Source: Odontesthes bonariensis (lineage: Eukaryota; Chordata; Actinopteri; Atheriniformes; Atherinopsidae). From it: a DNA stretch of 64,000 nucleotides. The stretch lies in the NCBI RefSeq assembly GCF_027942865.1, contig NC_134525.1, forward strand, positions 20,645,657-20,709,656, given 5' to 3'. The notes under the pieces are model-generated. The model was not told the origin of the DNA and did no database searches. It saw only the letters and a list, made by a program, of their open reading frames with translations. The position numbers were made by a program, and so were the translations under genes. Positions 11,832 to 63,017 of the stretch are shown here, piece by piece (position 1 is the first letter of the stretch; each line of letters opens with the position of its first letter).

Positions 11832-14800
11832 ATGTCCAGACTTGAGAACCACTGCTGGAGCTGCTCTTGTTCACCGAAAGCTGAAATTAAGCATTCATCT
11901 GGAGCAAAGTGGTTTGCATCCAAAGCTGAAGAAATGATGTCCATCATCACCACGGTGCTCGGCAGCGCCTACGGCTCCCTGCACGACGTCCGGACCGCCA
12001 ATCTCATCCGCCGGGGTGTCGTACTCTTCACGGTCGGAGTGTTCCTCGCCCTGGTGCTCAACTTGCTGCAAATACAAAGACATGTCACCCTGTTTCCCGA
12101 GGAGGTGATGACAACTTTGTTTTCGTCTGCCTGGTGGATCCCACCTTGCTGCGGCACAGGAGCAGGTGAGCGGACTATAAGCTGATAGAAAATTTTGACT
12201 GGTGGGTTATAAATAGGTCTGGGGGGGCAGTTTTACACTGTTTCTAAGTTGTTAGCTCCTATTTGGGACAAAGGAATGTAGAGAGAGGAGGGGTCACAGT
12301 GCAGTACAATTTCCTTATTAACAGAAAATGAAAGTGAGGAATGTAATCTAGTTTAATTTTTCTTTCAATTGTAGTGACTAAAACTTGAGAAATCCCTTCT
12401 GCGAGGCGTATTTTCATTGCACGCCTAACGAGACTGCAAATAGTGCCATCTTAAACGAAATACGATAGAATCAGAACACCTTGATTGAGTCACCAAAGTC
12501 ATCAACTTCTGTAGCATCACATGGTGATGTATCATCATTAGGCTTTGTATTCATTAGCTATTATTTAAGCATTCTTATCTCGGGCAACGTTAGTTCTTAT
12601 GGTTTTGTCTGGCAGCCAGTTATCGAAAAACCTGACTCGGTACAGATGGTAGAGATTCTTGATCTCTGATTGGTCGCAACAACCGGACACGACGTGTGCT
12701 GTACGCTCATTGGCTGGTGTCATAACGGGTGAGCTGAGGGCCTTCCCCTTTTTGAGGCCAAGAACCAGGAAGCTGGGGAAAAAATAAAGAAGCATCCGTG
12801 TTAGACTCCTCCTCACATGTGCTGCAGGGAGGAAAACAAACCCGAACAAAAGGGGTATAGCGTCAAGTTTCACGGTCTGTTCACTTAAGTATCTGCCTCA
12901 TTAAAGTGTCAATGTCAAGCAACAGCTTGTTCTGAGGGTTTTTTTTGTGTAAACTAAGTACATTTAATTCTCAGAAGATTGTTCAGAGAAGCTATCACGG
13001 TGCCATGTCTTTAATCCCTTACTATAATAATAATAATATATTTTATTGTAAAGTTTCAATTGAAAAGTTGACCAGTAACAGCAAAATATCATGCTTTGTT
13101 AGTTATTAGCATTCTTTCTAATAATCAACTTCAAAGAAAGGTGAAATTGCTGTGCTATTTTCTTACAGTAAACTACAGTAAAAAGCAGTTTCTTCACAAT
13201 TTCTAGTTTTAAATGTTCTGCAGATATGTAGTAAAAGAGTGCCAAAACATACATTAAATGGACACACAAACAAACAAGTCGGAGACAAAATAAGTAAACT
13301 TTTTTTTTTTTTTCCTTGCCAGTGTTTTAAGCATACGCACAGGTTGTGTATAAATGAGTCACTAAGTATGGAAACACAAGCTCAGCAAAAAAAAAAAATC
13401 TCTTGCAGTAGCTCTCTGGCGGGATTTTCCATCTGTGGTAAACATAATTTTTTGCTTATCCTGTGTAATTTTGGCCTGTTGCTTCCTTTTTTTGCAGCTG
13501 TTATCGGCCTGCTGTATCCCTGCCTCGACAGTCATTTGGGGGAGCCACACAAGTTCAAGAGGGAGTGGGCCAGCGTAATGAGATGCATCGCAGTGTTTGT
13601 CGGTATCAACCACGCAAGTGTTGTATCCTTTCATGATGGACTCATCCTCTGCAGACTCGGTTATTTTCATTGTTTCCCACATCCCTTTTAATTTTTCATT
13701 GTTGAAATCAGTGGAAGGTTCACCAATAATCCATTTGTTAGCAGGGCTAGAGCAGTGCACCAGCCTGCATTACCCTTTGACGTCAACTGTTGGTGGAACA
13801 AACTGGTCGTACAAATATTTGAGTGAGACCTAATCACATGTCAGCTTCATACTGTTTGACTTTGTCCTTAACTTACCATAACGCAGAAACTAGACTTTGA
13901 CAACAACGTGCAGCTCTCCCTAACGCTGGCAGCCCTGTCCTTGGGCCTGTGGTGGACATTCGACCGCTCCAGGAGTGGCTTTGGCCTGGGCATTACCACC
14001 GCCTTCCTGGCCACCGTGATCACACAGCTGCTGGTCTACAATGGAGTTTACCAGTAAGTCTAAAGGTTTCTGCAACACCACGGTGTTCAGGAACAGTTGT
14101 ATAAGTGGGTCAAAGTAAACCCAGCTCTGGTGGGATTGAATGAGATAAAATACTTGGAACTACCTTTCTGCTTATAGCATGTGAAGCACTGAGGGTTATT
14201 TATGGTGGTCTCCTTGTCTCTTGGATTCCAAGTAGTAGTGCCTCAATGAGAATTTGTGGCATATGACATCCAAAATATGCAGCATAGATGGGTAACTGGT
14301 CGAAAAAGTAGCTGCAAAATATTAGAGCAACAAAGCAGAAAGCTCCTAAAAGTGTTGTGAGTTGTAATCCATTTATCCCACATTAGTAACAATTATATAA
14401 TAATTGTTGGGGTTTTTGTTTTGTGTTTTTTGTCTCCTTTTCAGGTACACATCTCCAGACTTCTTATATGTGCGCTCCTGGCTCCCATGCATATTCTTCT
14501 CAGGCGGGGTTACTGTGGGTAACATCGGACGGCAGCTTGCCATGGTAACGTCTGCTGCCATTTCTAATCTGTAATCCTCTAAGTGAAGGATCAGTCTGAT
14601 GTATTAATGCCTTTGTATGCTGCTGACACTGCCTCAGGTCACACTTGACATAACACCTCACCTCAACCCGTCTTTGGAATGTCGCCATTTTAGGATTGAC
14701 CTCGACCAATATATCTGCTTATAAAGTGGCTCCATTACATACCTGAAAAGACCCCCTCATTCTGCGGCTGTTGCTCCGCTGTATTTCTTCACACTGATAA

Positions 14801-43744: not shown

Positions 43745-44026
43745 CTAATTGAAATCATCAAGTGGGACAATCACTGAAATAAAGAAAAAGATTTGCCAGT
43801 AAATTCATCCCCGCGGTCTCTCAAAGCAGCATGTTTTTAATGTGGGTCACATCCATTCGCTGCTTTATTTCGCCACCTCCAACCCTGAAAATTAAAGAGA
43901 AAAAAATGCCTTCCCCTAGATGACCAGAGTAGCTTCTACCCAACTATATTTGAGGTCAAAGTTCATTAAATCCCCTTGGTAACACCACAGCAACAAGAAA
44001 CAACGATGTCTAGACAGGTCATGGTG

Positions 44027-44061
44027 CCCCCCCCCCCCCCCCCCCCCCCTCCCCCCTCCCC
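44027..44061 (+). repeat. poly(C) tract
   Basis: A run of 23 C followed by CT-interrupted C blocks. It is prone to length error in assembly. Confidence 0.95.
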
Positions 44062-46579
44062 TCTTCTCAGCAATGCCACCCCACCTCCCTGTGGTTCCTT
44101 CCGGAAGGAGGTGTCAGCAGCAGCCAAGTACAGGGTAAACAGGGCAGGGTGGGGGGGTGGCCTTTGGCCCGCATGGGGTCGGATCAGCACCTCCACCCTC
44201 CACTGATCAAAGATGAGTATCCTCCATGCCAGGGCCTTGGTCAAAGGGGGCAGGGTTGGGAGATGAACTCTGAGTTTCTGTAATCTAGACGTGTCCAGAT
44301 CCGATTGTCTTCTTTCACGGCCCAAAATGGACCCTTCCGGTGCTGCTGATTACATTAGGGAGGACAACCTCTTTTCACAGGGGCACCCAGACAAAAGAGG
44401 CGCTTCCGTGCCCCTCGCCATCTGGTCCCAAAATAACAGAAAAGGTCCCAGGGAAGGGGAAAAAAAAAGAAAAAAAAAAAAAAAAAGAAAAAAAAAAGCC
44501 CAGCCAGCACACAGACTTAAATGAAAGGAACACTGTTTGAATAGATGGGATGCTTGGACAGATAAGCAAACATACAGTAAAGCCTCACATTTACAGAGAG
44601 ATTGGAACCCAATCTACATCTGCAAATAAAGCTGTGTACGTTAGCTCTGTGATGAGTAGGCCTGCAAATTGAGAACTCTGCCAGACATACATATATACAT
44701 GCATCATTATTATTGCAAGCCATCAATGCCCAGTGGCTCTTCATCAGCTTGAACTAATCTATGTCGTACCATTCAGGACCACGTTTAAAGATTTGGATGG
44801 AAATTAGATAAAAGGCACTAAAATGTGCGACGGTTCAGAGTTCCTAAAACAATGCAGTCAATAGAAATTAAGCAAAATAATTCAACATGTAGTACATTAG
44901 CCATAACTAGGGCTGAGAGAGCCAGTGCATGGAGTAGCCAAAGGGATTTTCAACACATTATGTTGATTGGCAATTGATTTCCAGCCTTAAATAATGCACA
45001 CTGTATGTTTGCCATATCCCTGGTGGTTACTCTGCAACTTGTGTGCCTGTTTATGATGTGCATGTCATTAGGACTTCTTACTATAAGTGTGACAGTTTCT
45101 ATATATTTTATATATTCATCTATCTTATTTTTAATACTGATGAAACTGTTCTTCAGCAATAGAGTATTTAGTCCTTCTCCAGGTCAGGTTTCCTTGAAAA
45201 CTACACTGAATCCAAGTGCTGAGCAAAGAAGAGATACAAACTGGAATTCTCCAGCCTCATTTTTGATATTCTCACAGGGTTACTTCAGATTTGGGGTCCT
45301 TTATGGAAAAAGAAGAGCCTGGGTTTAGAATGGCATTACATTGTTGAGGTTATCAGCCAAATGCAAATCTTTGCCGTCAATCACTTTTCATTTGTTAAGT
45401 TTTTCAAAATCCAACTTGAGATGATTCTAAAGCACTTAATGATTTTATCTCTAAAAGCCTAAAATTTGTTAATCTTAGGAAACTACCGACTGAGGACTCC
45501 TCATTACAGTCTCTTGGAGATTATGTCAAATTCAAAATCCTGTATGTCTTTGTTCAGACTGCAATAATGTGGTCCGCTGACTTGAGTGGGCTCGTTTGAA
45601 AGGTTTGCAGGTTAAACAGGGAGGGAGGCACTTCAGGTAAGTAACCCTGTGTTATACTGTCACACGATGTATAACCTGGGACTTCTAGAGCTCTGTTTAG
45701 TTGATACTGATTATATGCTCTGTTATGCATGGTCTGTTTTTGTCTCCATTTGAGCCCAGGGAAATTTGGTAAATAAACTACCTCATTAGCAGAAAAGGTG
45801 ATGATGTCCTTGATCTTGAATGGTTCTGTCAAGAGAAAGCTGAACATAAAGGACTGAGGGATAAAGTCAGATGAAGTAACTTTGTTCGTATTGTCTGCCA
45901 TGCAGCTCTCAACATACACATGAAGTTCTTAAATGGTGTAAGTCATGGAACTGTGCTGGGTACAAAAAAAAAAAAAAAAAAAATACAAAATGTGTAATTA
46001 GTGCAAATCCCTGAGCAACTCAACCCTGAGACTTGAGACACTAACCATCGGCCATCGCTGTGATCAGCTGTCATCTTTTGAAACTCTGCCCATACTTGTA
46101 GATAGCAGGGCTAAGGTTATACGTTAAACCAACTCAGACAAGGAATTTTATTCTAAATAAATGCACAAATTGAGGGTTTTAGATGAACCTGTCAATCCAA
46201 CTTTAACTGTAGGAGACGGGGATTTGGGAGATTTGATTAAACAGTACTGCAGAAACAAAATTTTTAATGAATCATGGCACATTTGCATATTGTTGGTACA
46301 ACTAGGCCACGCAGAATTTCCAAGGCAAAACCCAAAGATGGGTTTTTAATGAAGTTTCTTGTTAGCTTTACTTGCACACCCGAGACACTCTGCTAAGATG
46401 AATTGATTGTAATGAAATTTCATGCAACTTTGAATTTTATTTCTTAATGCCTCAGAGTATACAGTACACCAAGTCTTACATAAGGAAAGAATGATATGTA
46501 GTTAAAGGGCAAACACAGCAATAAAGCGAATCATTTACAAAGTACCTGTTCATTTTCAATAGGTTCAAATTTGACTCTT

Positions 46580-46585
46580 TTTATT
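46580..46585 (-). terminator. candidate polyadenylation signal of the unidentified minus-strand gene
   Basis: TTTATT on the plus strand is AATAAA on the minus strand, about 290 bp beyond the stop codon at 46871-46873. Confidence 0.4.
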
Positions 46586-46870
46586 CCTTTTTCCCCTTTT
46601 TTGTTTTTAACAGAAAGTCCAAATAAATCACATATAGGCCACAAAGTCCACTATTTTTAATAGCCAAATAAAATAAAAAAAAAAAAAAAAATCAATAATA
46701 AATAATCATTTCATCTAGTCCTAAATGGTCAGAAGGCACAGATACACAAAATAAATTGAATGCAAATGACTCGTTTCTGGTGGGATTCTTGACAGCTACA
46801 TCCTGAGTGGATTGGAAATTACCGTCTGTGTCTTAAAAGACCTACTTCAAGACATGACAACAAGCTCCTC

Positions 46871-49800
46871 TCATCCCTGCTGTGATGCGGCAACATCTTG
46901 CAAGTACTTTACATCTGATATGTTCATCTGTGTCATTTCCACGGGACGCAGTTTCTCTCCAAACAATATAGAAAGAACAAACTGATCAGGTGAGGTGCCG
47001 TGATCTTGCTGCAGTTTCTGTAGAAAGCTCAAAAGGAAAAAAAGATAGATATTTTACAATGTAGCATAAAAGTATGAGTAAAGCCTAGCTGTTCTGAATT
47101 ACATTCAGACCAGAGTCAGACTGTCAGTTGCCAGAAACGCAAGTGTAATGATGACGCCTATTTTCACTAGGTTTGGTTCCTTCAGTGTGTCAATGTTAAA
47201 CCTTTAAGACACTCACACAAACTCAAGCGGCCAACTTTGTTCGTCTTTGTTTACTCGAGGAGTACTTTTTGGCCTTGCAATTATTGATAGAAAAAAAGGG
47301 TCTATGTAGGAGAAGAGAATACCGAACTAAAGAACAGCTAAAGCCAGAATGTTTGCGGAGTTCGTTTGGTTTTTAGTTGAGTGTGCTGCAAGATCATAGC
47401 AATATAAAGACACTGTTGAATCATAAGAACACAAAATATTACATTAAATGCGTGGGAGTCTGACAGCTCTAGAAAACATCTAAATGTGTTTGAACTTCCT
47501 CTACTGGTGGAATACCAGCATGGATGTTAGAACCTTGTTTTCTATACGCTCAGGTGATTTCACTGCTCTTATATTCATGAACTGCTTTGCATGATTTTTT
47601 TCTTCTGCTCGGAAAAACTGGCAGTGTAAGGATTCACATGCAGCCACAGCCAGAAGTGAAGCAAACTCCTCATATAGTATGCACATGATCACACACCTGC
47701 TGTCTATTCCCCCCCCAAAAAATCTCACATTTTAAGAAAAGACAAAAGCGAGAAAACCAAAAGCTCCTCCACCTGCGGATCAAAATAAAACACCTGACGG
47801 ATACCTTGCAGTTAATCACACATGTTGAATACTTCTACAGCATAAAGAAACAAAGACTGTATTTCTAGAACTTTTTCTCCAGTACTCTGCCTTAAGCCTT
47901 TCTAAACTTCACTGAAGATAGTAACAGCCATCAAGAGAGTTTGCTTACTTTTGTGGTTGCTAAATATTTCCTCAACGACACAATCTTTAAAGTTGTACGC
48001 TAATCGTTAATTAATGAGTAAAGCGAACCTAAATAACAGCAGCATTGCAGTCCAACCCATCCCAGATTTGTTGCATGTGTGTCTGCTGGGGGTTGCACAG
48101 GATTGGCAGACACCAGCTCGATATCACAGCAGTGGGATATGTGAAGTGAGTGTGACATATAGAGGGCAGGTGGTGCCAGTCATGTGGATACATCAGCATA
48201 GTCCCAATCTGTAGTGTCTGAACTCCATAATTAGTTATTTTTCTTTAGCAGTCTCCAAATTATGTCATCAGGCCTTACAGAGTCCTCATTATTCACTGCA
48301 GCAAACAAACTGCAAATAGCACTCAATCCTATGGAGACCTGAGAAATGCATTCCAGGGAGGGACTTGAATTGCTGTGTGAAACCAACAAGAACCAACATG
48401 ACACCTGGCGTTTTACAGCTAAAGTGGGTTGTTGCACACTGCTGAGCACAATGGTGAGACATGCTTCTTAATTGTACGGGTTCTGAGCATACGGAGAGAG
48501 GAAGAAAACATCACGGCTCGTCTATAAAGGGCTGAACCTTTTTTTCTTTTCTTTTGTCTTTAAGATATCGACGTAGTGAAAACATGGCTCGGGCATTATC
48601 AGGGCTCATCTGCCCCTAATTGCCAGTGTAAAGAAATGTCCAAAAGCTTTCAATAGCATAAAATATCAGAGAAAAATCCAAAAAGAAAAAAAATGATTAC
48701 GTTGAAAAAAAATAAAAATAAAAAATAAACCTTTAAAAGATGTTAAATTGGCACAAGTCACATAACTATGTTCTCTTTGGGGCAACAACTGCAATCAGTG
48801 GTGCTTTGCTGTCATGTTGGAGGTGTGGGGAAATATTCACAACAATCTGTTCAGATTCTAAAGCATTTGGGTCAAAGACATTCATTGTGATGTGCAAGGT
48901 GAATAAAAAACTTTAGGTGCACCAAAGGCAGACAGGTCTTAAATCTGAATTTTTTAGACTAAACATAGACAAGCTGAACATAATCTTACTATTTGGTAAA
49001 ATGATTTCTTGTTGAATCTTTTCAAGGTATGTGAATGTAAAAGAAGCTTGTTTAAAAATGGGGGGAAAAAAAACAACAAAAAAAAACCCCACAGAATCGA
49101 GCTAAAATAGTACACAAGATGTAATGACAACTTTCAGTAAAATTCTAAGTATTCTTTCATTTCCTCTTCATTTCTAAACTTAAAATATCTGTCAGTAACC
49201 ACATCAAAGTCACAACATTACAAACTGTTTTGAGTTTTTGGGACAATGTAATTTGAAAAGAGAATGCACGGATCCAAAAAAAAAAAAAACAACAACTCAG
49301 TTCTTTAGTATCAAATACAAAAGTGAACTACCACTTGTAGCTGTTCTTAAAAAGAAAAACAATACTTTATAATGAGCAACTATAACAAATAATGCAAAAG
49401 TTTAATGTTCACGAATGAGCAACAAACACTAGTAACTTTTGACTGTAAAGGTAATCAGTTGTTCACAGGCTCTCCACTATGATACGTGGAGTTAAGACAA
49501 ACAATTCCAAATAAATAGGATCATATAAGCCAAAGCTTTTTGTTGCAAAGCTTGTGAATTGGTGTTACAGCTGGCACCTTGGAAATCGTACGGTGTGTAC
49601 CTTTTCATAAAGGTGACATGTGCCCTGACTTAAAGCCTGCACAAACATTTTAAAGAGGATAATTAGTTCACAGTTAAAGGCAGCAATCATCCAGTGATGA
49701 GGATAAAAGGGCTCAAAGGAAAACGATCTGGAAATGGGCTGGTACCATTCACATCACAGTCGGATTCCAGAGGTTATATGCTAAGTCCTGTTAAGAGCCT

Positions 49801-52800
49801 CAAAGGGCGAACACTGAACACTGAGCACTTTTCCGTGACTGTTTAGAAACACAGCCAGAGTTTAAGCACACAAACATGAAAAATATCAATTTCACATTTG
49901 GTTTAACGCTTTCACACTTTGTGTCACTGACACCCAGAGAGAAGGGCGGTGGAAGACAAAACACAGCTCCTGGATAAGGATCATGTTAATGCCTATCAAT
50001 TAGGATCAAAAAGGGATTAACCGGCATGGTTGCAGCGGTGGGATGGGAGCCCATGCAAAGTCACTGAATACTTGGGGTCGCACCCCCAACTTCATTAGGG
50101 CTGACCTTTCCACGCCATTGTGTGACAGGAGAGACCCTATAGTCTGTGGGTGCAGTCATAGCCACCTTAGAAGGCTTGTGGAGAGCCAAATATGAGACAT
50201 GCAGAAAAGCTGCTGGAGATCAGTGAAATATGAAATATTCACTCTTAAAGTCCAGGGAGACTTATTAGGTTACTGCAACTTGGTGCAGGTAGGTATTTAC
50301 TCATCAACTCCAACACTCAGAGCAAAGAAAATCATTTTCTTTTTCACCTTAGAGAGAAGTGAGATTTACTAATTAGTCATGGTGAAGCCTCCCCTCACTA
50401 TGATGTACCGCATGGTTGACGAGCTCCAACACTACCTTGCTGTCTTAATTCATGAAAGGTCAAATGGCAAAGTGAAAGCAGGTATTCAAGGTGTGTTGGA
50501 AAAAGCCCCAATTAAGGAAAAATGCAAGCACACCCTAAAGTCTCGCATATCCGACTTAGGGGGAGAAACTTTTCGCAAAGCCCCTGCACTGGGGAAATTG
50601 TAATGCAGCTGCATGTTAGGAGCACTTCTTCAAAAGATATTCATGAATGTGAAAGATAAGAAAGAAAATAGGCTGACATACAGAAAAGATTCAACTCAAA
50701 CCTGCTGTAAGGATATGATATAAATAAATACTAAATACTCATGACATAACTAACCCAGTCATGTCCAGCTTGAATTGCCTGGGTTTCTCTCTGGACCACT
50801 CAACATTAAAAGCAGTTAGTAGAGACAACATGTCCCAACTTTATGGTTACATCAGAGAATGGAACAAGTAACACGATTTTTCAAAGCATCTTTGAGAAAT
50901 TCTGCATTTACAGCCGAGTGGCCTCAATGTTAAAGGATAAGACCGGTTTTTTGACATCGGGCCCTTGATTTCACATTATAACATGATGTTCTACTCACCC
51001 CTGCTTGTTGTTGGTCATTTGGAGCTGTTCCGAAGATATTCGAGAGGCGTCTGGCTGCTCTCTTGAGATATTCGGCCATGAAACGGTTTCCTATGGGCAA
51101 GTTTATACAGGCACAAACTATGCTTTTTATAATTTATTAATTACTGTACACTAGCACTGATAACGTGGAGGTGCGTCGCTTACTTAAAAAAATCCGGGTT
51201 ACTGTAATTTTGAATTTTTGTCGTAAAGTGGGTGTTACTGACGTCATCGTCGTGCTACTGCCACAGACAGCCCACAGATCTGCTGCCTATTTATTCATTC
51301 GGCTAAAATTCAAAATTACAGTAACCCGGATTTTTTTAAGTAAGCGACGCACCTCCACGTTATCAGTGCTAGTGTACAGTAATTAATAAATTATAAAAAG
51401 CATAGTTTGTGCCTGTATAAACTTGCCCATAGGAAACCGTTTCATGGCCGAATATCTCAAGAGAGCAGCCAGACGCCTCGCGAATATCTTCGGAACAGCT
51501 CCAAATTACCAACAACAAGCAGGGGTGAGTAGAACATCATGTTATAATGTGAAATCAAGGGCCCAATGTCAAAAAAACGGTCTTATCCTTTAACTTGTAG
51601 TGTACCCTCAGCCTACTATGCAACAGCCTAACCAAAAGATTGTTCTCACTCTGGTAATAATAACTGCCTTATTTTTGTAAAAAAAATAAAAAATACTACA
51701 GCGATGCATCTTTAATTTAAAATACCTGTGGATTTTGATGATTTAAATGTCAGCCCTTAAATACTAATACTATATATTCCTATAATTGACCTTCATATGG
51801 TAACCCATATGGAAAAGTTTGCAAAGATACGATGTACTTGTTGTTTTAACTTTCCATACAAATGTTGAGCTGTCTGCCATGTGCAGCAAGGTGGAGTTAG
51901 GTTGGGTTAGACTGACAGTGATGCTTTTATGCTCAACAATGAAAAACAATATTTTGCCAACTCTAAGCCTTTTTATGAACAATACAGCCTTCATTAAACA
52001 CTAAGCAGCAGGCCAAGTTAAATAAAGTTTAGAAGGAAAATCTTTACTTTGTCAACGTGACCCTTTTTCATTTGGAAGGCTTCAATCCAGCAGCACACGT
52101 TCACTTTCAAGTGTTGAGAACTCAGTGAAACCCAGAGTTAAATAAGCAGAAGTTCTTCTAAAGGCAGAGAAGTTTCTTCCCAGAAGGAAAGTACTTGTTC
52201 AAGCTGCTGTTCAGATTAAGCAGGCGTGTAGCCTTGCACTGCAGTTAAACAGTGGTCACCCTGACTCACAGCCTTCTTTGTGCTGTTTATGAGCGTGGTA
52301 TAAATGAGCACACCCCATGTAGAAGTCAGTGCTGGATTTGCAGTCAAGTGAAAACAGGAGGCACTGCTGAAGCTGTCACCGCTACGCTGCTGACTGGGAA
52401 CGGACATGCAGCATGTGCACATCTGAAGTTTGGCAGGATCACAAACAGTTGGAACAAATGCAGGCAAATACACAACATTTACACTGCCGTCATTGAGAGA
52501 CCTTACCTTTCATGTGCCCCAAAAAGAATAACCGACGTTTAAATTACAGTCACGGTGGTTTTTCAAGCAGGCAGCCCTTTTTTTAAATGAGGACCTAATA
52601 TTCATGAGATGCTGTGGCTTCAGCTTAAATTTAGAACCAATACTCAATTAATGGGTGGTGATAAACAAAGTTCTGACACCTCCAAGAAAGAATCTTAATG
52701 GTGGATGAACAGGATGAATTCCGTGTCGCTGAAATTTTATTTTAGAACAAAAACAAGATTCAAGAGTCCATAAGATGAGCAAACGCTATTCATCGTTTTA

Positions 52801-55800
52801 AGGCTTCATGAATACAATATAAATCAAATGGTAAAAAACAACTTATAAAACAATATGATCAATAGTTCAAATGAACAAAAAACATGGTTGTATCATCAGA
52901 TGGGGTTTTTGTTCAAATAATTGCATCCAATTCAAAAATACTAACACTCAAAACAGTTTAAATAAATAATTTAACTGTGAAATGCCAATTCTCCTCAAAT
53001 AAACTGAAGAGAATTTTGCAAAGTAACTTCACTTTTTTGCTCCCCCCCCCCGACAAAAGTCAACAGGTTTCAGTGTGAAATTGGGAAAAAATAAAATCCA
53101 CTTCGCCAAACATTAATCTTTAGGTTCGGCAACTCTGACCTGCCTACTTTGGTCGTGACACCAAAACACATGCATAAACCCAGAGGTGCCTTTTTCTCCC
53201 CCTGTTTTTCGTGGCAACAGAGCAGAGACCCAGCTTAATGTTACTGACAGCCACTGTTGTGTTACGTGGCATCAGAACACTGTCTGGCTTTCACATAAGG
53301 TCTTAACAGTGAAGGAAAACAAGTATTCCAGAGGGTTAAGGTGACCTCAACCTTTCCATAAGACAAAAAAAAAGCAGTACCACATCACAGTGTAAAGTAC
53401 TTTTAAATAAATGCTGCAATGGGGTGGTCGTAATTTTGAAGTGCAATTACAGCCCATGCAACTTCATTAACGTTTAAACCTTCATTTTCAATTCATGCAA
53501 CATGAAATGCAAACAACACAGCATAATGTCATTATGGCTTTAATTCTAAATAAGCGCAATAAACAGAAAATAATTTTCAGATATTCATTACATTTATTGC
53601 ATGCATATAGCTTGATTTATATAACAGAAATGACATGCGGCAGAATTAAACGATTAAAATAAAGAATAGATGCAAAAATGCGGTCGCCCAAAACAGAAAC
53701 TGAACAGTTAAATTCCGATGACATTAAAGAAACAAATAGCACGACATTTGTTTCATATTAAATCGTGCGTTCAATGCATGACTCTGTGAAATAAAACAGC
53801 ATTCTTTTTGTCGTGAAAATAATTTGTTTTGTCGACCAATTTTTATTCAGTGAATCTTAAAACCTTTCTGTTATATTCACTACGTGAAAAATTCCATTCA
53901 TTAATAAATTAATTTACGTTGTGCCACTTACATTTTGCCAGCAATGTTATCTAAATACCTCATTGTTTGTAATATTATTTTTTTACAATCAACAGTATTA
54001 AATGTGTATCGCACACTACAGTTCAGAAGAAAAATAATTGGATAATGAAATGTTATGTTACTGTATGTTTGAATTTATTCATTCTTAAACATTTATGTTA
54101 AATTTTTATTTCTTATTTTAATAAACCGCATCAAACGCTGCACCAAAAGATCGTTTTGAAAAATCCAAAGAGAAAATTAAAATTAAAATACTCCGATAAA
54201 ATGAAGTCTCGTCGATGTTTACCGGACCAAAATTAACTATTTTAATTATGAACCCCAATTCTAGCCATATATATTTCCAAATATCTTCAGCAGAAAAGTT
54301 TGCGTACCCCAGAAAAGTTTTGTCACTTTCCTACAGGCGTTACAGTGAGTTCTGATTCTCTTCGACTACAAACTACAGAACAAACCCTCCCTTTCGCCTA
54401 ACCCTAAAATGGATGCTGATCGCTTTGAGTTATGGATGCCTAACACCAGCTATGGGTCACAGCTGTGCTCTTGGAGAATCAGCAAATGGACCCACGTGTT
54501 GGCAGACGGCCAGGAGACATTTGAAAAAATACAGTGAAGTCCTTGATTTAAAATACGCCACTCCAATATGTGTCATTACGCAGCAACAACTGGTGAGATA
54601 AACAAACAGCTATCTACAGCAGACAGTGGCAGGCCCTGCTGTCGCACAGAGCAATGCTTTGAAACATGCTCAGATTTGACTCAGTATATACACAGAAATA
54701 GGCTCAGAAATCTTTTCATTAAAGCTCAGGAAGCATTAGAGCCTAGATGAAAGCCTTTTTTTCACCAAACATCATCATGATGTTAGACCTCGTGACCTCA
54801 ATGTGGGTGGAGACAATGAACCAATAGAAAAACAGGATGGAGAATCACAGTGCCTCTTGCATCAGCATTTTTCAGCTAAGCCTCAAGTGAAAGTTACGAG
54901 CTACATATCCATGATTGTCTTATGAAGAGATCAAAAATAAGTGTTAATAAAAAAAATATTGCAGCTGAGGAGTGTGTGACAGGAGTGGATTTGATTCGCC
55001 AATTCTCAATATAACATCATGAGAAATGGCATTGCAGACCAGGGAAGAACCTCTGTAAATACTGCTGCGTGCAGCGGAGTGATATTTCCCTCAGGCAATC
55101 ACATTCACTCACTGCAGCATTCCTAGAATTGCTTTTCTCAACTTTAAACAAGCGTAAATGTGCTTTAATGAACAGGTCAACACAGATCTTACCATTCGGA
55201 TGGGTTTACTCCCGGACATGAGGGCACGACAGTCTGCAAGAGACCTTGAATCTCCTGTGTGAACAAAAGAGAAAAGCATTATAAAACAAGTGTGTGGCTC
55301 AGTAAGAGGCAATACACACATTATTTTGTTGCAAAAACAGAAAAGTACAAACTACACTTCCAATCACAATACCAAAATAAATTAAGCATTGTGCATGCTG
55401 CATGTATCGCTTAGGGAATGTGAAAAAAACATTTAATTAACGGTAATTAACGGTTCTGAAACTTGTTTAAAAAGGGCTGAGTTGTTGTTTATCCTCAAAT
55501 ATTTTCTTAGCCGATTTATAATTCGAGACGCACACGTTAGCAACAATTTTATTTTAAGGTACATTTAAGTTATACACTTTGGTTTATTATCCGCATAAAG
55601 AGGCAATCACGCAAATCCTCAATTATCATCATGGTCACTATTTATCAAACAAAACAAAAAAGGATAACCTTTAATTTAACGGACAACAAACATATTACAA
55701 AAAAAATTTTAAACTCAGTTCTGATCGTACATAATCAATTTTAAGTATTTGAAAGGCCAAAACAAATAACTGTTAGCCACACTGTACTTTCAGAAAGGTG

Positions 55801-56799: not shown

Positions 56800-58568
56800 A
56801 TATCATAAAAAAAATCTTTCAGAATTTGATGCCATGTACATGCAGAGCCATTGTGGTTCTTCTATTTTTTTAAAGCCCTGCAAGCATCTGGCAGTGATGA
56901 ATCAGACAAAATGGCTACCAGGTGTCCCAAGAACAGACAGATAAGCAGCAGTCGAGAAATGGGGGACAGGGGTACAACTAATATTTTGAGAATCACAAAA
57001 AAAAAAGAAAAAAAAAAAAAAGGAAACTGGCCAGTTAAAAGGACTAAGTTGACCCAAGGGTGCTAACTAAAGTGTAAATAAACCTTCGACCAACAAACAC
57101 AACAAATTAGAAAAATACACGAAAAACGTGACCTTCAGATTTCCCTCCATTTGCTCGTTTCATTATGGCGTAATTTAAATATAGAGCATCGCCATACTTC
57201 CCATGTTTTGATTTGTTTTTTCCCAAATATTTTCTCCTATAAGTCATGGGTAGCAACAGCGCTTTAGCGGCAGCCATCTTGCCCCAAAAGAGCAGACACT
57301 GGAAGGCGGGAGGAAGGCTCTCCCAAGTCATATGACTGCTCTGTCTGCAGACAACTGCAGTGACAGAGCAAAAGCGTCTAGACAAGCAGCAGATCAGGTA
57401 CACTGGCACTGTCGCACACAGCTCACTTGGATTTTTTTTCTTTTGTTAAATCCTCATCAACATATTTCTTTCGCCTGAAATGTAAAGTGTTGGAAACTGT
57501 GTGACGATGAACCTCGTCAACCCTGGTCAGGCATTGTTCAAACTAGATCAATTCCAAAGTGAAGATATTCCAGGCTGCGGGAGGAAGAATAAATGCTGCG
57601 CAAAATATCAAAAACGTTCAATTTGGTCTGATGAAGCAGAGTTCTGGGTCGTGGTTCTCTGTGTGTTTGCATACCAAAACAACGGAACGATACTCTAAAT
57701 GCAGTTTTATGGAAAACGTTTTCTTTGCTCTGAAGCATGTCGGGTGAAGTTAAAGATGAACACTGAAAACAAAGACTTCAAACTACAAGAAAAATAAAGA
57801 TAGTTTTTTTGTTGTTGCGATAAACATCCCTATGAATCCACCTTCTTCATATTAGCAAGCACAGTCTAAAAGTGAATACACAGTTCCTATTTTGCCCTAC
57901 AATGTATACAGCAACTAACCTCTCTGTGCTTTTGCAGGCTCCCTGCTGAATGGTGCACTCCTCCTGAACTCCAGTGATGAAGGATGATTTCCTGCAGAGC
58001 ATAAACAAGGTCAGGACAGGACAGAAAGGTGACAGAGGGTTCATATTGCATCGTCCTTATGCCACATAACACGTGTTTTTCTGTATCAGATTAGTAGCCT
58101 AAACTGTAAGTGTGCGAGCAACCCAGTGCTTTGTAATCATAGCTAGTTAAGGCAGGGAAGCTGAAAGGGTTAAAACAAACAAACAAACAAAAAAAGGTTA
58201 TGATCCACTGAAGGTTTTCTCCCTCAGGTGTCTGCTGCCTCGCGTCAGCACAGGTGCGTCACCTGCGCATCTTCCTGGAGTGGTGAGAATGAGGTCAAGT
58301 CCGCACAACAAATTAGCTACGGGCTGTTGTTTGAAATGTGGTGGAAAAGACTGTCTCCGTGAAACACAGTGCGAATCATTTCACAACGTTAAATTAATCG
58401 AGCCCCTCACAGTTTGTCAATGAACGGAATGATTTTTGATAGAGAAAAATGGGACTAAGAAAAAAAAAAGAACAAATAAACACCTTTTAAAGCAGTGGTG
58501 TAATGCTGCGGTATCTACGGTATGTTGGGCAGTTTGCACTCTGGCGCTTGCCTTGCCTACCTGTGCAT
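46871..58568 (-). CDS. unidentified multi-exon gene, minus strand
   Basis: Exons in transcription order: 58561-58568 (ATGCACAG, start codon), 57920-57991, 55888-55945, 55193-55254, probably 52062-52120, 50999-51090, 46871-47017 (stop TGA). The first three junctions are phase-perfect, and exon 55888-55945 is open in only one frame. Peptides include EECTIQQGACKSTER, PVPNLIQYLANMTGIAVRK, EIQGLLQTVVPSCPG, NRFMAEYLKRAARRLSNIFG and FVLSILFGEKLRPVEMTQ. Acceptors (TTTATGCTCTGCAG, GCAGCATTTTTTCAG, TTGTTCACACAG, GAGCTTTCTACAG) and donors (GTTAGT, GTAAGA twice, GTGAGT) are good. Exon 50999-51090 joins 46871-47017 in phase 0. The link from 55193-55254 to 50999-51090 needs an intervening exon; 52062-52120 satisfies phase but uses a weak GTCACG donor. 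About 190 residues are predicted, with no signal peptide or membrane segment and a basic helix-like KRAARRL patch. I do not recognise the family. It lies where cnpy1 might be expected but does not resemble it. Confidence 0.55.
47020..50920. other. large intron of the unidentified gene
   Basis: No secure exon is seen. It contains several A-rich tracts and a long complex island at about 49920-50640. A minus-strand frame ending at 48231 (VSIGLSAICSLFAAV…) follows a CATTTCTCAG acceptor and might be an alternative terminal exon, but support is poor. Confidence 0.4.
49920..50640. promoter_or_regulatory. candidate conserved noncoding block
   Basis: About 700 bp of non-repetitive, balanced sequence inside the large intron, with many homeodomain-type cores: CAATTAGGATC, GGGATTAACC, CTAATTAGTCATGG, GTCTTAATTC and CCAATTAAGG. 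It also contains ATGCAAAG octamer-like and TGACCTTTCC nuclear-receptor-like sites. The short plus-strand frame at 50379-50603 lies within it but has no splice sites or recognisable product. Confidence 0.35.
50930..51593. repeat. near-perfect inverted repeat carrying an exon in each arm
   Basis: Arms 50930-51219 and 51304-51593 are reverse complements, with about four or five differences by eye, and flank an 84 bp loop. The outer ends read TTAAAGGATAAGACCG and CGGTCTTATCCTTTAA, so TTAA lies at each border. Each arm contains the same acceptor-exon-donor unit: minus strand 50999-51090 and plus strand 51433-51524. Two arm differences fall in the exon and change residues (S/A and D/Y). The loop contains a perfect palindromic CRE, TGACGTCA, at 51239-51246. 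It could be an inverted local duplication or a foldback DNA transposon with TTAA target sites (piggyBac- or Kolobok-like). Confidence 0.9.
52125..55190. other. intron of the unidentified gene
   Basis: Mostly AT-rich (especially 53500-54300) without secure exons. A plus-strand frame at 54413-54601 followed by GTGAGATAAA looks mildly protein-like but has no acceptor or partner exon. Confidence 0.4.
56725..56796 (+). repeat. compound TA/CA microsatellite
   Basis: A long TA run interrupted once by TACA, then a CA run. Confidence 0.97.
57198..57277 (-). CDS. alternative first coding exon of the unidentified minus-strand gene
   Basis: On the minus strand, CAAGATGGCTGCCGC contains a YY1-like AAGATGGC overlapping a start codon at 57277, an arrangement typical of housekeeping first exons. 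The frame reads MAAAKALLLPMTYRRKYLGK and then NKSKHG. It ends with AA before GTATGG, leaving phase 2, exactly what exon 55888-55945 needs. It lies inside the intron after 57920. The N-terminus is basic and could be a targeting peptide; that is speculation. The donor is mediocre. Confidence 0.35.
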
Positions 58569-58649
58569 AAAGAGTCTGCTGATGGACTGCAGGAGAAAAA
58601 ACTTTCACACCGTTAATCTAAGAAAAAAAAATATATATATATTTTGACT

Positions 58650-58990
58650 GAGCGTGGCGACTCGTGGGCGAAGGCGTCTGAGGATGAGAGCGAAGATCAC
58701 ATTTCCCAGCAGGCGGCTTCCTTGTAAATGCGCAGAGGCATGTAAAAACTCCATTTCCAAATTTATCAATTTCAGACAGACTCCAGACAGTCTCCCAACG
58801 GTTACGTGCCTGGTTCCCTTGCGCGTGCACGCCGAATGGCGCGGGAAGTGGCGATAACAGATCCTGAGCGACGGCCCGCGCGGCCAATGGCGAAGAGGAG
58901 CCCGATCTCTCGACCAACCGCGACGGGCGACAAGTGTCAGCTCCCGCCCTTCATCCTCCTCCTCACCCGTTTGTTGACTGTGAGGGCGCT
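58650..58990 (-). promoter_or_regulatory. CpG-rich promoter, probably of the unidentified minus-strand gene
   Basis: The most CpG-dense stretch in the right half of the window (GCGCGTGCACGCCGAATGGCG, GACGGCCCGCGCGGCCAATGG, CAACCGCGACGGGCGACAAG). It has a CCAAT box in GGCCAATGGCG near 58880. It lies directly upstream, in minus orientation, of the first coding exon at 58568. CpG retention in otherwise CpG-poor DNA implies an unmethylated promoter. Bidirectional activity is possible, but no plus-strand exon was found. Confidence 0.55.
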
Positions 58991-59216
58991 GAATAAAACA
59001 ACAGTCTGAATTAAGCAGTTCATAGCATCGACATGTGGGTCACTGACTGCAGCTTATTCACTAAGGGAGAACAGCAGACATGCATGGCAGTCTGTGTTAA
59101 ACAGAAATGATATCATATGTACTTATCCCAGTCATAAATCATTTAGAATAAAATAGCTATTGGATTGTAGACTGCCTCTTTATAGCCTACACACAAATAC
59201 AATGACTTGACTGCAT

Positions 59217-61680: not shown

Positions 61681-62265
61681 AAGATTTACTCCGTCATGGA
61701 CTGGCGACCTGTCCAGGGTATACCCTGCCTGTCGCCCAATGACAGCTGGGATAGGCTCCAGCCCCTCCATGCCCATTGTCGCATATATGCTACAAACCGT
61801 TTGACTCAATCAACCAGCTGAGCTAGCATCTTTATTCCCCCAATGCCGGTTAGTTCATTTTCACTAGGGACCTAGGAACCTTTATATATATAAATATGTA
61901 AAAAAAAAAAGGGTGAATAAAAAAAACATTGTTTTTTCACTGTTATATTACTGTGTTGTTGTTATCTTATTATTGACCATTTAGCCTGGTGTTGCAAATA
62001 AGCAACATACCAAATTACATACAAAACATAACAAATTGACTCCAAATTAACCAGGATGCCTGTTGTCGCAAATTTGCAACATACCAAAATTTCTATTTAT
62101 TTTTTGTGCAAAAGTTAAATTAATAATCTCAGCATTATTTACCATCTACTTAAAGACTAAAACACAAACAAAACATTTTTCTTTATATACAGCTATATAA
62201 ATTCAGGCGTTAAGGGGTTAAGTGGGTATGGAAAATGGATGGATGCATGATGGACAAGATTTACT
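61681..62265 (+). mobile_element. L2-type retroposon 3' end, interrupted by a nested insertion
   Basis: The piece ATGGACTGGCGACCTGTCCA … AGCTGGGATAGGCTCCAGCC (61696-61764) is the conserved 3' region of teleost L2-type retroposons. The matching end of the element, GGGTATGGAAAATGGATGGATG, appears only at about 62224-62245. The 10-mer AAGATTTACT flanks the whole unit at 61681-61690 and 62256-62265, consistent with a target-site duplication. About 440 bp of unrelated sequence separates the two parts. Orientation is plus. Confidence 0.7.
61775..62208. mobile_element. nested insertion of unknown type with palindromic units
   Basis: This stretch splits the L2-type end. It contains three related imperfect palindromes: TTGTCGCATATATGCTACAA (61776-61795), TGTTGCAAATAAGCAACA (61990-62007) and TTGTCGCAAATTTGCAACA (62063-62081). 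The last two share the following ATACCAAA. No coding capacity. Possibly a nonautonomous DNA transposon; boundaries are approximate. Confidence 0.45.
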
Positions 62266-62905: not shown

Positions 62906-63017
62906 ATCATCTTAAGTATCTATCCATTCATTTTCTATACCGCTGAATCCGTCGGTCGGGTCGCGGGGGGGCTGGAGCCTATCCCAGCAGTCAATGGGCG
63001 AGAATCATCTTAAGTAT
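62906..63017 (-). mobile_element. 5'-truncated L2-type retroposon with 14 bp target-site duplication
   Basis: Element 62920-63003 read on the minus strand gives CTCGCCCATTGACTGCTGGG, ATAGGCTCCAGCCCCCCCGC and CAGCGGTATAGAAAATGAAT, the L2-type 3' end. It is flanked by identical ATCATCTTAAGTAT at 62906-62919 and 63004-63017. The insert is only 84 bp, so it is severely 5'-truncated. Confidence 0.9.

What the first reader, a model, noticed from the sequence alone, without database searches (positions are those of the whole stretch)
50930..51593. A coding-type exon sits inside a 290 bp near-perfect hairpin
The two arms are reverse complements, about 98-99 % identical by eye, with an 84 bp loop, and both contain an identical splice acceptor, 92 nt exon and GTGAGT donor. 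The minus-strand exon (50999-51090) joins the terminal exon at 46871-47017 in phase 0 with a continuous frame. Pre-mRNA from that gene would fold this exon into long duplex RNA, which could mask splice sites, attract ADAR editing or yield small RNAs. Of the few arm differences, two lie in the exon and both are nonsynonymous, so one copy may be drifting.
Basis: partly seen in the sequence, partly recalled or inferred. Interest (0 to 1): 0.75.

Follow-up and report, generated by a model that had tools for sequence, protein, structure and literature searches.

The report
Fish hairpin transposon (MITE), not exon
The 664-base hairpin is best read as a short, probably young DNA transposon with very long inverted ends that inserted at a TTAA site near a fish engrailed-2 gene; the "exon" inside it has no support as part of a gene.

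Summary
The hairpin is real: arms 50929-51223 and 51300-51594, 289 of 295 positions complementary without gaps, 76-nt loop, predicted to fold at -550 kcal/mol. The splice-like motifs, the 92-nt open segment and the in-frame join to 46871-47017 are also there. But the repeat stops at TTAA on both sides (50930-50933, 51590-51593) with ends 5'-AG...CT-3'. These are published marks of Kolobok DNA transposons (PMC9587614, PMC6004289; passages), unlike piggyBac, whose ends mostly begin CCC. CpG o/e is 0.98 against a window median of 0.41; 0 of 852 GC-matched windows reach it. I read it as a non-autonomous long-TIR MITE, built like zebrafish Angel, about 16 kb downstream of an en2 exon. The exon reading lacks support: weak acceptor, a frame that runs on through the "donor", four of four arm differences in that ORF nonsynonymous, 17 of 26 nearby acceptor-frame candidates joining in frame, and no relative of the 75-aa product in a protein set that holds fish proteins. 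Copies elsewhere could not be tested: the genome search did not complete 16 times. An ordinary member of a known kind.

The parts
50930..50933 (.). left TTAA, target-site copy
   Evidence: the inverted repeat ends here apart from one extra matching base
50934..51223 (+). left terminal inverted repeat, begins AGGATAAGACCG
   Evidence: pairs with 51300-51589; 6 mismatches over the 295-nt repeat
51224..51299 (.). 76-nt segment between the arms; contains TGACGTCA at 51239
51300..51589 (-). right terminal inverted repeat, ends CGGTCTTATCCT
51590..51593 (.). right TTAA, target-site copy
50999..51090 (-). 92-nt exon-like segment of the left arm (no support as an exon)
51433..51524 (+). the same 92-nt segment in the right arm (two differences)
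51444..51590 (+). 49-codon ORF of the right arm, reading through the GTGAGT, probably chance; counterpart on the - strand at 50933-51079
   Evidence: no homologue for the right-arm ORF, no Pfam match for either

Best explanation
It is a non-autonomous DNA transposon: a MITE of about 656 bp with ~290-bp terminal inverted repeats, most likely moved by a Kolobok-type transposase. The enzyme would recognise the 5'-AGGATAAG ends, cut the element out and insert it into a TTAA, which is then found on both sides. Shown here: the long inverted repeat, the TTAA on both sides, the AG/CT termini, no stop-free run above 81 codons, and the raised CpG content. Inferred: the mobilising enzyme, that many copies exist, and that the insertion is recent. 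The GTGAGT and acceptor-like motifs are then simply part of the arm sequence. The only local effect I would expect is passive: a transcript that crosses the element would form a long duplex.
For: 295-nt arms with 6 mismatches and a 76-nt loop. Repeat bounded by TTAA, a word with frequency 0.0073 per position in the window; of 8404 TTAA pairs 80-2500 bp apart, 3 have 16-nt inverted ends with at most 3 mismatches, and all 3 lie in this hairpin, one being its outer boundary. Termini AG...CT fit the published Kolobok rule: TTAA duplications with 5'-RR and YY-3' ends (PMC9587614, passages; PMC6004289, passages). CpG o/e 0.977; 0 of 852 GC-matched 664-bp windows reach it. Longest stop-free run 81 codons; no Pfam match for the two 49-aa arm ORFs. 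The window is a vertebrate insig-engrailed locus (Pfam Homeodomain and Engrail_1_C_sig; INSIG above its cut-off for one ORF, 26.6 against 28 for the other); first named relative engrailed-2a of Seriola aureovittata, 95 % over 86 % of the query. Long-hairpin MITEs of fish (Angel) are documented (PMC3636048, passages; PMC12628747, passages).
Against: No second copy was found: none in this window, and the own-genome search did not complete. The T2-MITE rule AGGRR is met at four of five positions (AGGAT). No transposase relative was sought in the genome or found. TTAA is palindromic, so within an inverted repeat the two TTAAs are not independent observations. No empty site in a relative could be checked. 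High CpG could also mean unmethylated sequence; 13 windows elsewhere reach the same CpG o/e.
Confidence: 0.85

Rival explanations
1. A real exon, of a gene running on the minus strand, was duplicated in inverted orientation; the hairpin masks its splice sites or is edited.
For: AG and GTGAGT flanks, the donor a good consensus match, and an in-frame join to an ORF at 46871-47017 with 12 of 16 pyrimidines before its acceptor.
Against: Weak acceptor of the 92-nt segment, 9 of 16 pyrimidines, absent from the screen. Reading frame runs through the donor. In-frame joins are common nearby, 17 of 26 acceptor-frame combinations. No Pfam match for the 47-aa terminal ORF; its two PDB matches had no stretch passing on its own and cover 14-16 residues. 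Joined product without relatives, although fish proteins are in that database. The repeat edges fall at TTAA, not around an exon.
Confidence: 0.03
2. A MITE of another superfamily: above all piggyBac, which also uses TTAA, or a TA-flanked Tc1/mariner-type MITE.
For: TTAA is also the piggyBac target, and one piggyBac element is reported with inverted repeats of 528 bp (PMC10813416, passages); TA lies inside TTAA.
Against: Conserved piggyBac end motifs listed are CCCTT, CCCTC, CCCAT and CACTA (PMC10813416, passages), while these ends begin AGG. The repeat matches out to the full TTAA.
Confidence: 0.1
3. Assembly artefact: one arm assembled twice in opposite orientation.
For: Two near-identical arms; no reads could be inspected.
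Against: Six arm differences, an asymmetric 76-nt loop and TTAA at both outer ends are not expected of a folded-back artefact.
Confidence: 0.02

Closest known systems
Angel MITEs of zebrafish
   Same: Non-autonomous fish element whose long inverted repeats give a stable stem-loop (PMC3636048 and PMC12628747, passages).
   Different: Sequence membership not tested; no Angel consensus was at hand. A likeness of the TACTCACCC...TTGTT subterminal part to Angel is recalled only and comes from no call.
Kolobok superfamily, including the T2-MITEs of Xenopus
   Same: TTAA target and 5'-RR...YY-3' ends; the element starts AGG (PMC6004289 and PMC9587614, passages).
   Different: Fifth base is T where T2 has R; no transposase found; the arms make up nearly all of the element.
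piggyBac MITEs
   Same: TTAA target.
   Different: Ends begin AGG rather than CCC (PMC10813416, passages).

Membership tests
Kolobok superfamily | 4-bp TTAA target-site duplication | tested here: met
   TTAA on both sides; the empty site was not seen in a relative
Kolobok superfamily | 5'-RR and YY-3' termini | tested here: met
   AG...CT; rule from PMC9587614 (passages)
Kolobok superfamily | Mobilised by a Kolobok transposase | not tested
   genome search unanswered (16 requests, first, last)
T2-MITE | AGGRR terminal motif | tested here: not met
   AGGAT: four of five positions (rule from PMC6004289, passages)
piggyBac | ends beginning CCC (most elements) | tested here: not met
   ends begin AGG (rule from PMC10813416, passages)
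MITE (general) | short, inverted ends, no transposase ORF | tested here: met
   656 bp between the TTAAs; longest stop-free run 81 codons
MITE (general) | many similar copies in the genome | tested here: inconclusive
   no other copy in 64 kb; genome search unanswered
Angel | sequence match to the Angel consensus | not tested
   no consensus in the tools; a recalled fragment found nothing in viral contigs, which says little

The most novel reading that the evidence does not exclude
The long hairpin arms of a fish MITE carry ready-made acceptor, open segment and donor on both strands, so that wherever it lands in an intron one sense copy can be exonised while the other arm pairs with it and restrains its splicing: a self-regulated portable exon.
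Probability: 0.03. Interest if true: 0.6.

Novelty: new member of a known kind. Interest (0 to 1): 0.12.

Why it matters
Mainly as a caution: exon-like motifs inside a hairpin with TTAA ends are better explained by a transposon than by a gene. If transcripts cross it, it would be one more natural source of long duplex RNA near a developmental gene, as has been proposed for Angel elements in zebrafish non-coding RNAs (PMC3636048, passages).

Tried and rejected
Gene model: canopy-family motifs were scanned for in six frames because CNPY1 lies next to EN2 in vertebrates (recalled); nothing convincing appeared. Simple splice-site exon search. PDB match of the terminal ORF gave two hits to TAL-effector chains with no stretch passing on its own, over 14-16 residues: taken as chance. 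Rfam (gathering threshold) and tRNA scans of the window were empty. A search for other copies in the window found one 20-nt hit with E 0.42. Exact-pattern scans of viral contigs and bacterial/archaeal genome contigs found nothing; these collections are not expected to hold fish DNA, so this says little. A full-text search for six sequence strings (four from the element, two Angel-like from recall) found no paper. Of a review, PMC7786948, passages were seen and not used. Paper searches added nothing used here.

Full report
What is there. The inverted repeat is real and strong: arms 50929-51223 and 51300-51594, 6 mismatches in 295 positions, no gaps, 76 nt between the arms. It is the longest found in the window with arms up to 3000 bases apart; of 29 pairs, 25 were shown, and the rest of these are simple-sequence runs and one 37-nt pair. 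As RNA it folds at -550.1 kcal/mol, and 0 of 20 shuffles fold as well.

What it is. The paired part ends at TTAA on both sides, apart from one further matching base. Among 8404 pairs of TTAA 80-2500 bp apart in the window, three have 16-nt inverted ends with at most three mismatches; all three are in this hairpin, and the outermost is its boundary. The ends read AG...CT. Kolobok elements make TTAA duplications and have 5'-RR and YY-3' termini (PMC9587614, passages). T2-MITEs of Xenopus are described with TTAA and AGGRR (PMC6004289, passages); here it is AGGAT, so the T2 motif itself is not met. PiggyBac, which also uses TTAA, mostly begins CCC, though one such element with 528-bp inverted repeats is reported (PMC10813416, passages). 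The longest stop-free run in the element is 81 codons. Its CpG o/e is 0.977 against a median of 0.41 over 1267 windows taken every 50 bases; 13 windows elsewhere (ten starting at 53351-53801, three at 58251-58351) reach that value, but none of 852 GC-matched ones. This fits DNA that has not had long to lose CpG, though unmethylated sequence would look the same.

Where it is. The window carries two INSIG-type ORFs near 11.8-13.7 kb (one above and one just below the Pfam cut-off) and an engrailed homeodomain exon at 34.5-34.9 kb, all on the plus strand. The first named protein in the relatives' list is engrailed-2a of Seriola aureovittata (95 % identity over 86 % of the query), so the host is very probably a spiny-rayed fish (inference). 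The element lies about 16 kb downstream of that exon. I saw no gene that spans it, but ran no full gene prediction.

The exon claim. The motifs are present but carry little weight. The donor is a good match to consensus; the acceptor has 9 pyrimidines of 16, and the exon is not in the list of a simple splice screen. The four arm differences within that ORF are all nonsynonymous (S/A, D/Y, R/Q, T/N), which gives no sign of selection on a protein; four differences are too few for more. On the minus strand at 44-51 kb, 65 acceptor-like sites gave 26 acceptor-frame combinations with an ORF of at least 40 codons; 17 would join in frame with one of the two open frames of the 92-nt segment, and 9 with the stated frame. 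The joined product had no relative (only proteins of 0.55-1.75 times its length are searched), nor did the right-arm ORF. The same database returned 1080 relatives of the engrailed exon at E <= 1e-10, 120 listed, named fish among them. The 47-aa terminal ORF has no Pfam match; its two PDB matches are taken as chance.

How it works. Most likely a passenger element moved by a transposase supplied in trans (inferred from the superfamily features). Fish elements of this architecture are known: Angel elements can form stem-loops through long inverted repeats, 71 zebrafish lncRNAs hold exonised Angel elements, and compensatory substitutions are claimed in two (PMC3636048, passages). A hairpin-based amplification model was built on them (PMC12628747, passages; the original 1999 paper was not seen).

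What is missing. Copy number, an empty site and an autonomous parent would settle the matter. The own-genome search was sent 16 times and never answered (listed under Tried and rejected). The confidence of 0.85 therefore rests on structure, not on copies; that it is a transposon of some kind I hold at about 0.95.

Noticed in passing
53350-54500: AT-rich stretch (32 % GC) with the highest CpG o/e of the window (up to 1.54): a possible conserved non-coding or enhancer-type element downstream of en2.
   Followed up: no
61732-61768 and 62965-63001: Inverted pair of 37 nt at 92 %, which looks like a dispersed fish repeat (the likeness is recalled).
   Followed up: no
51239-51246: TGACGTCA (CRE-like palindrome) in the loop of the element; one other copy in the window at 13778.
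   Followed up: no
58251-59014: Second stretch with CpG o/e above 1 (three overlapping windows).
   Followed up: no
44000-51000, - strand: More acceptor-plus-open-frame combinations on the minus strand (26) than on the plus strand (12) by the same screen; no gene identified.
   Followed up: partly
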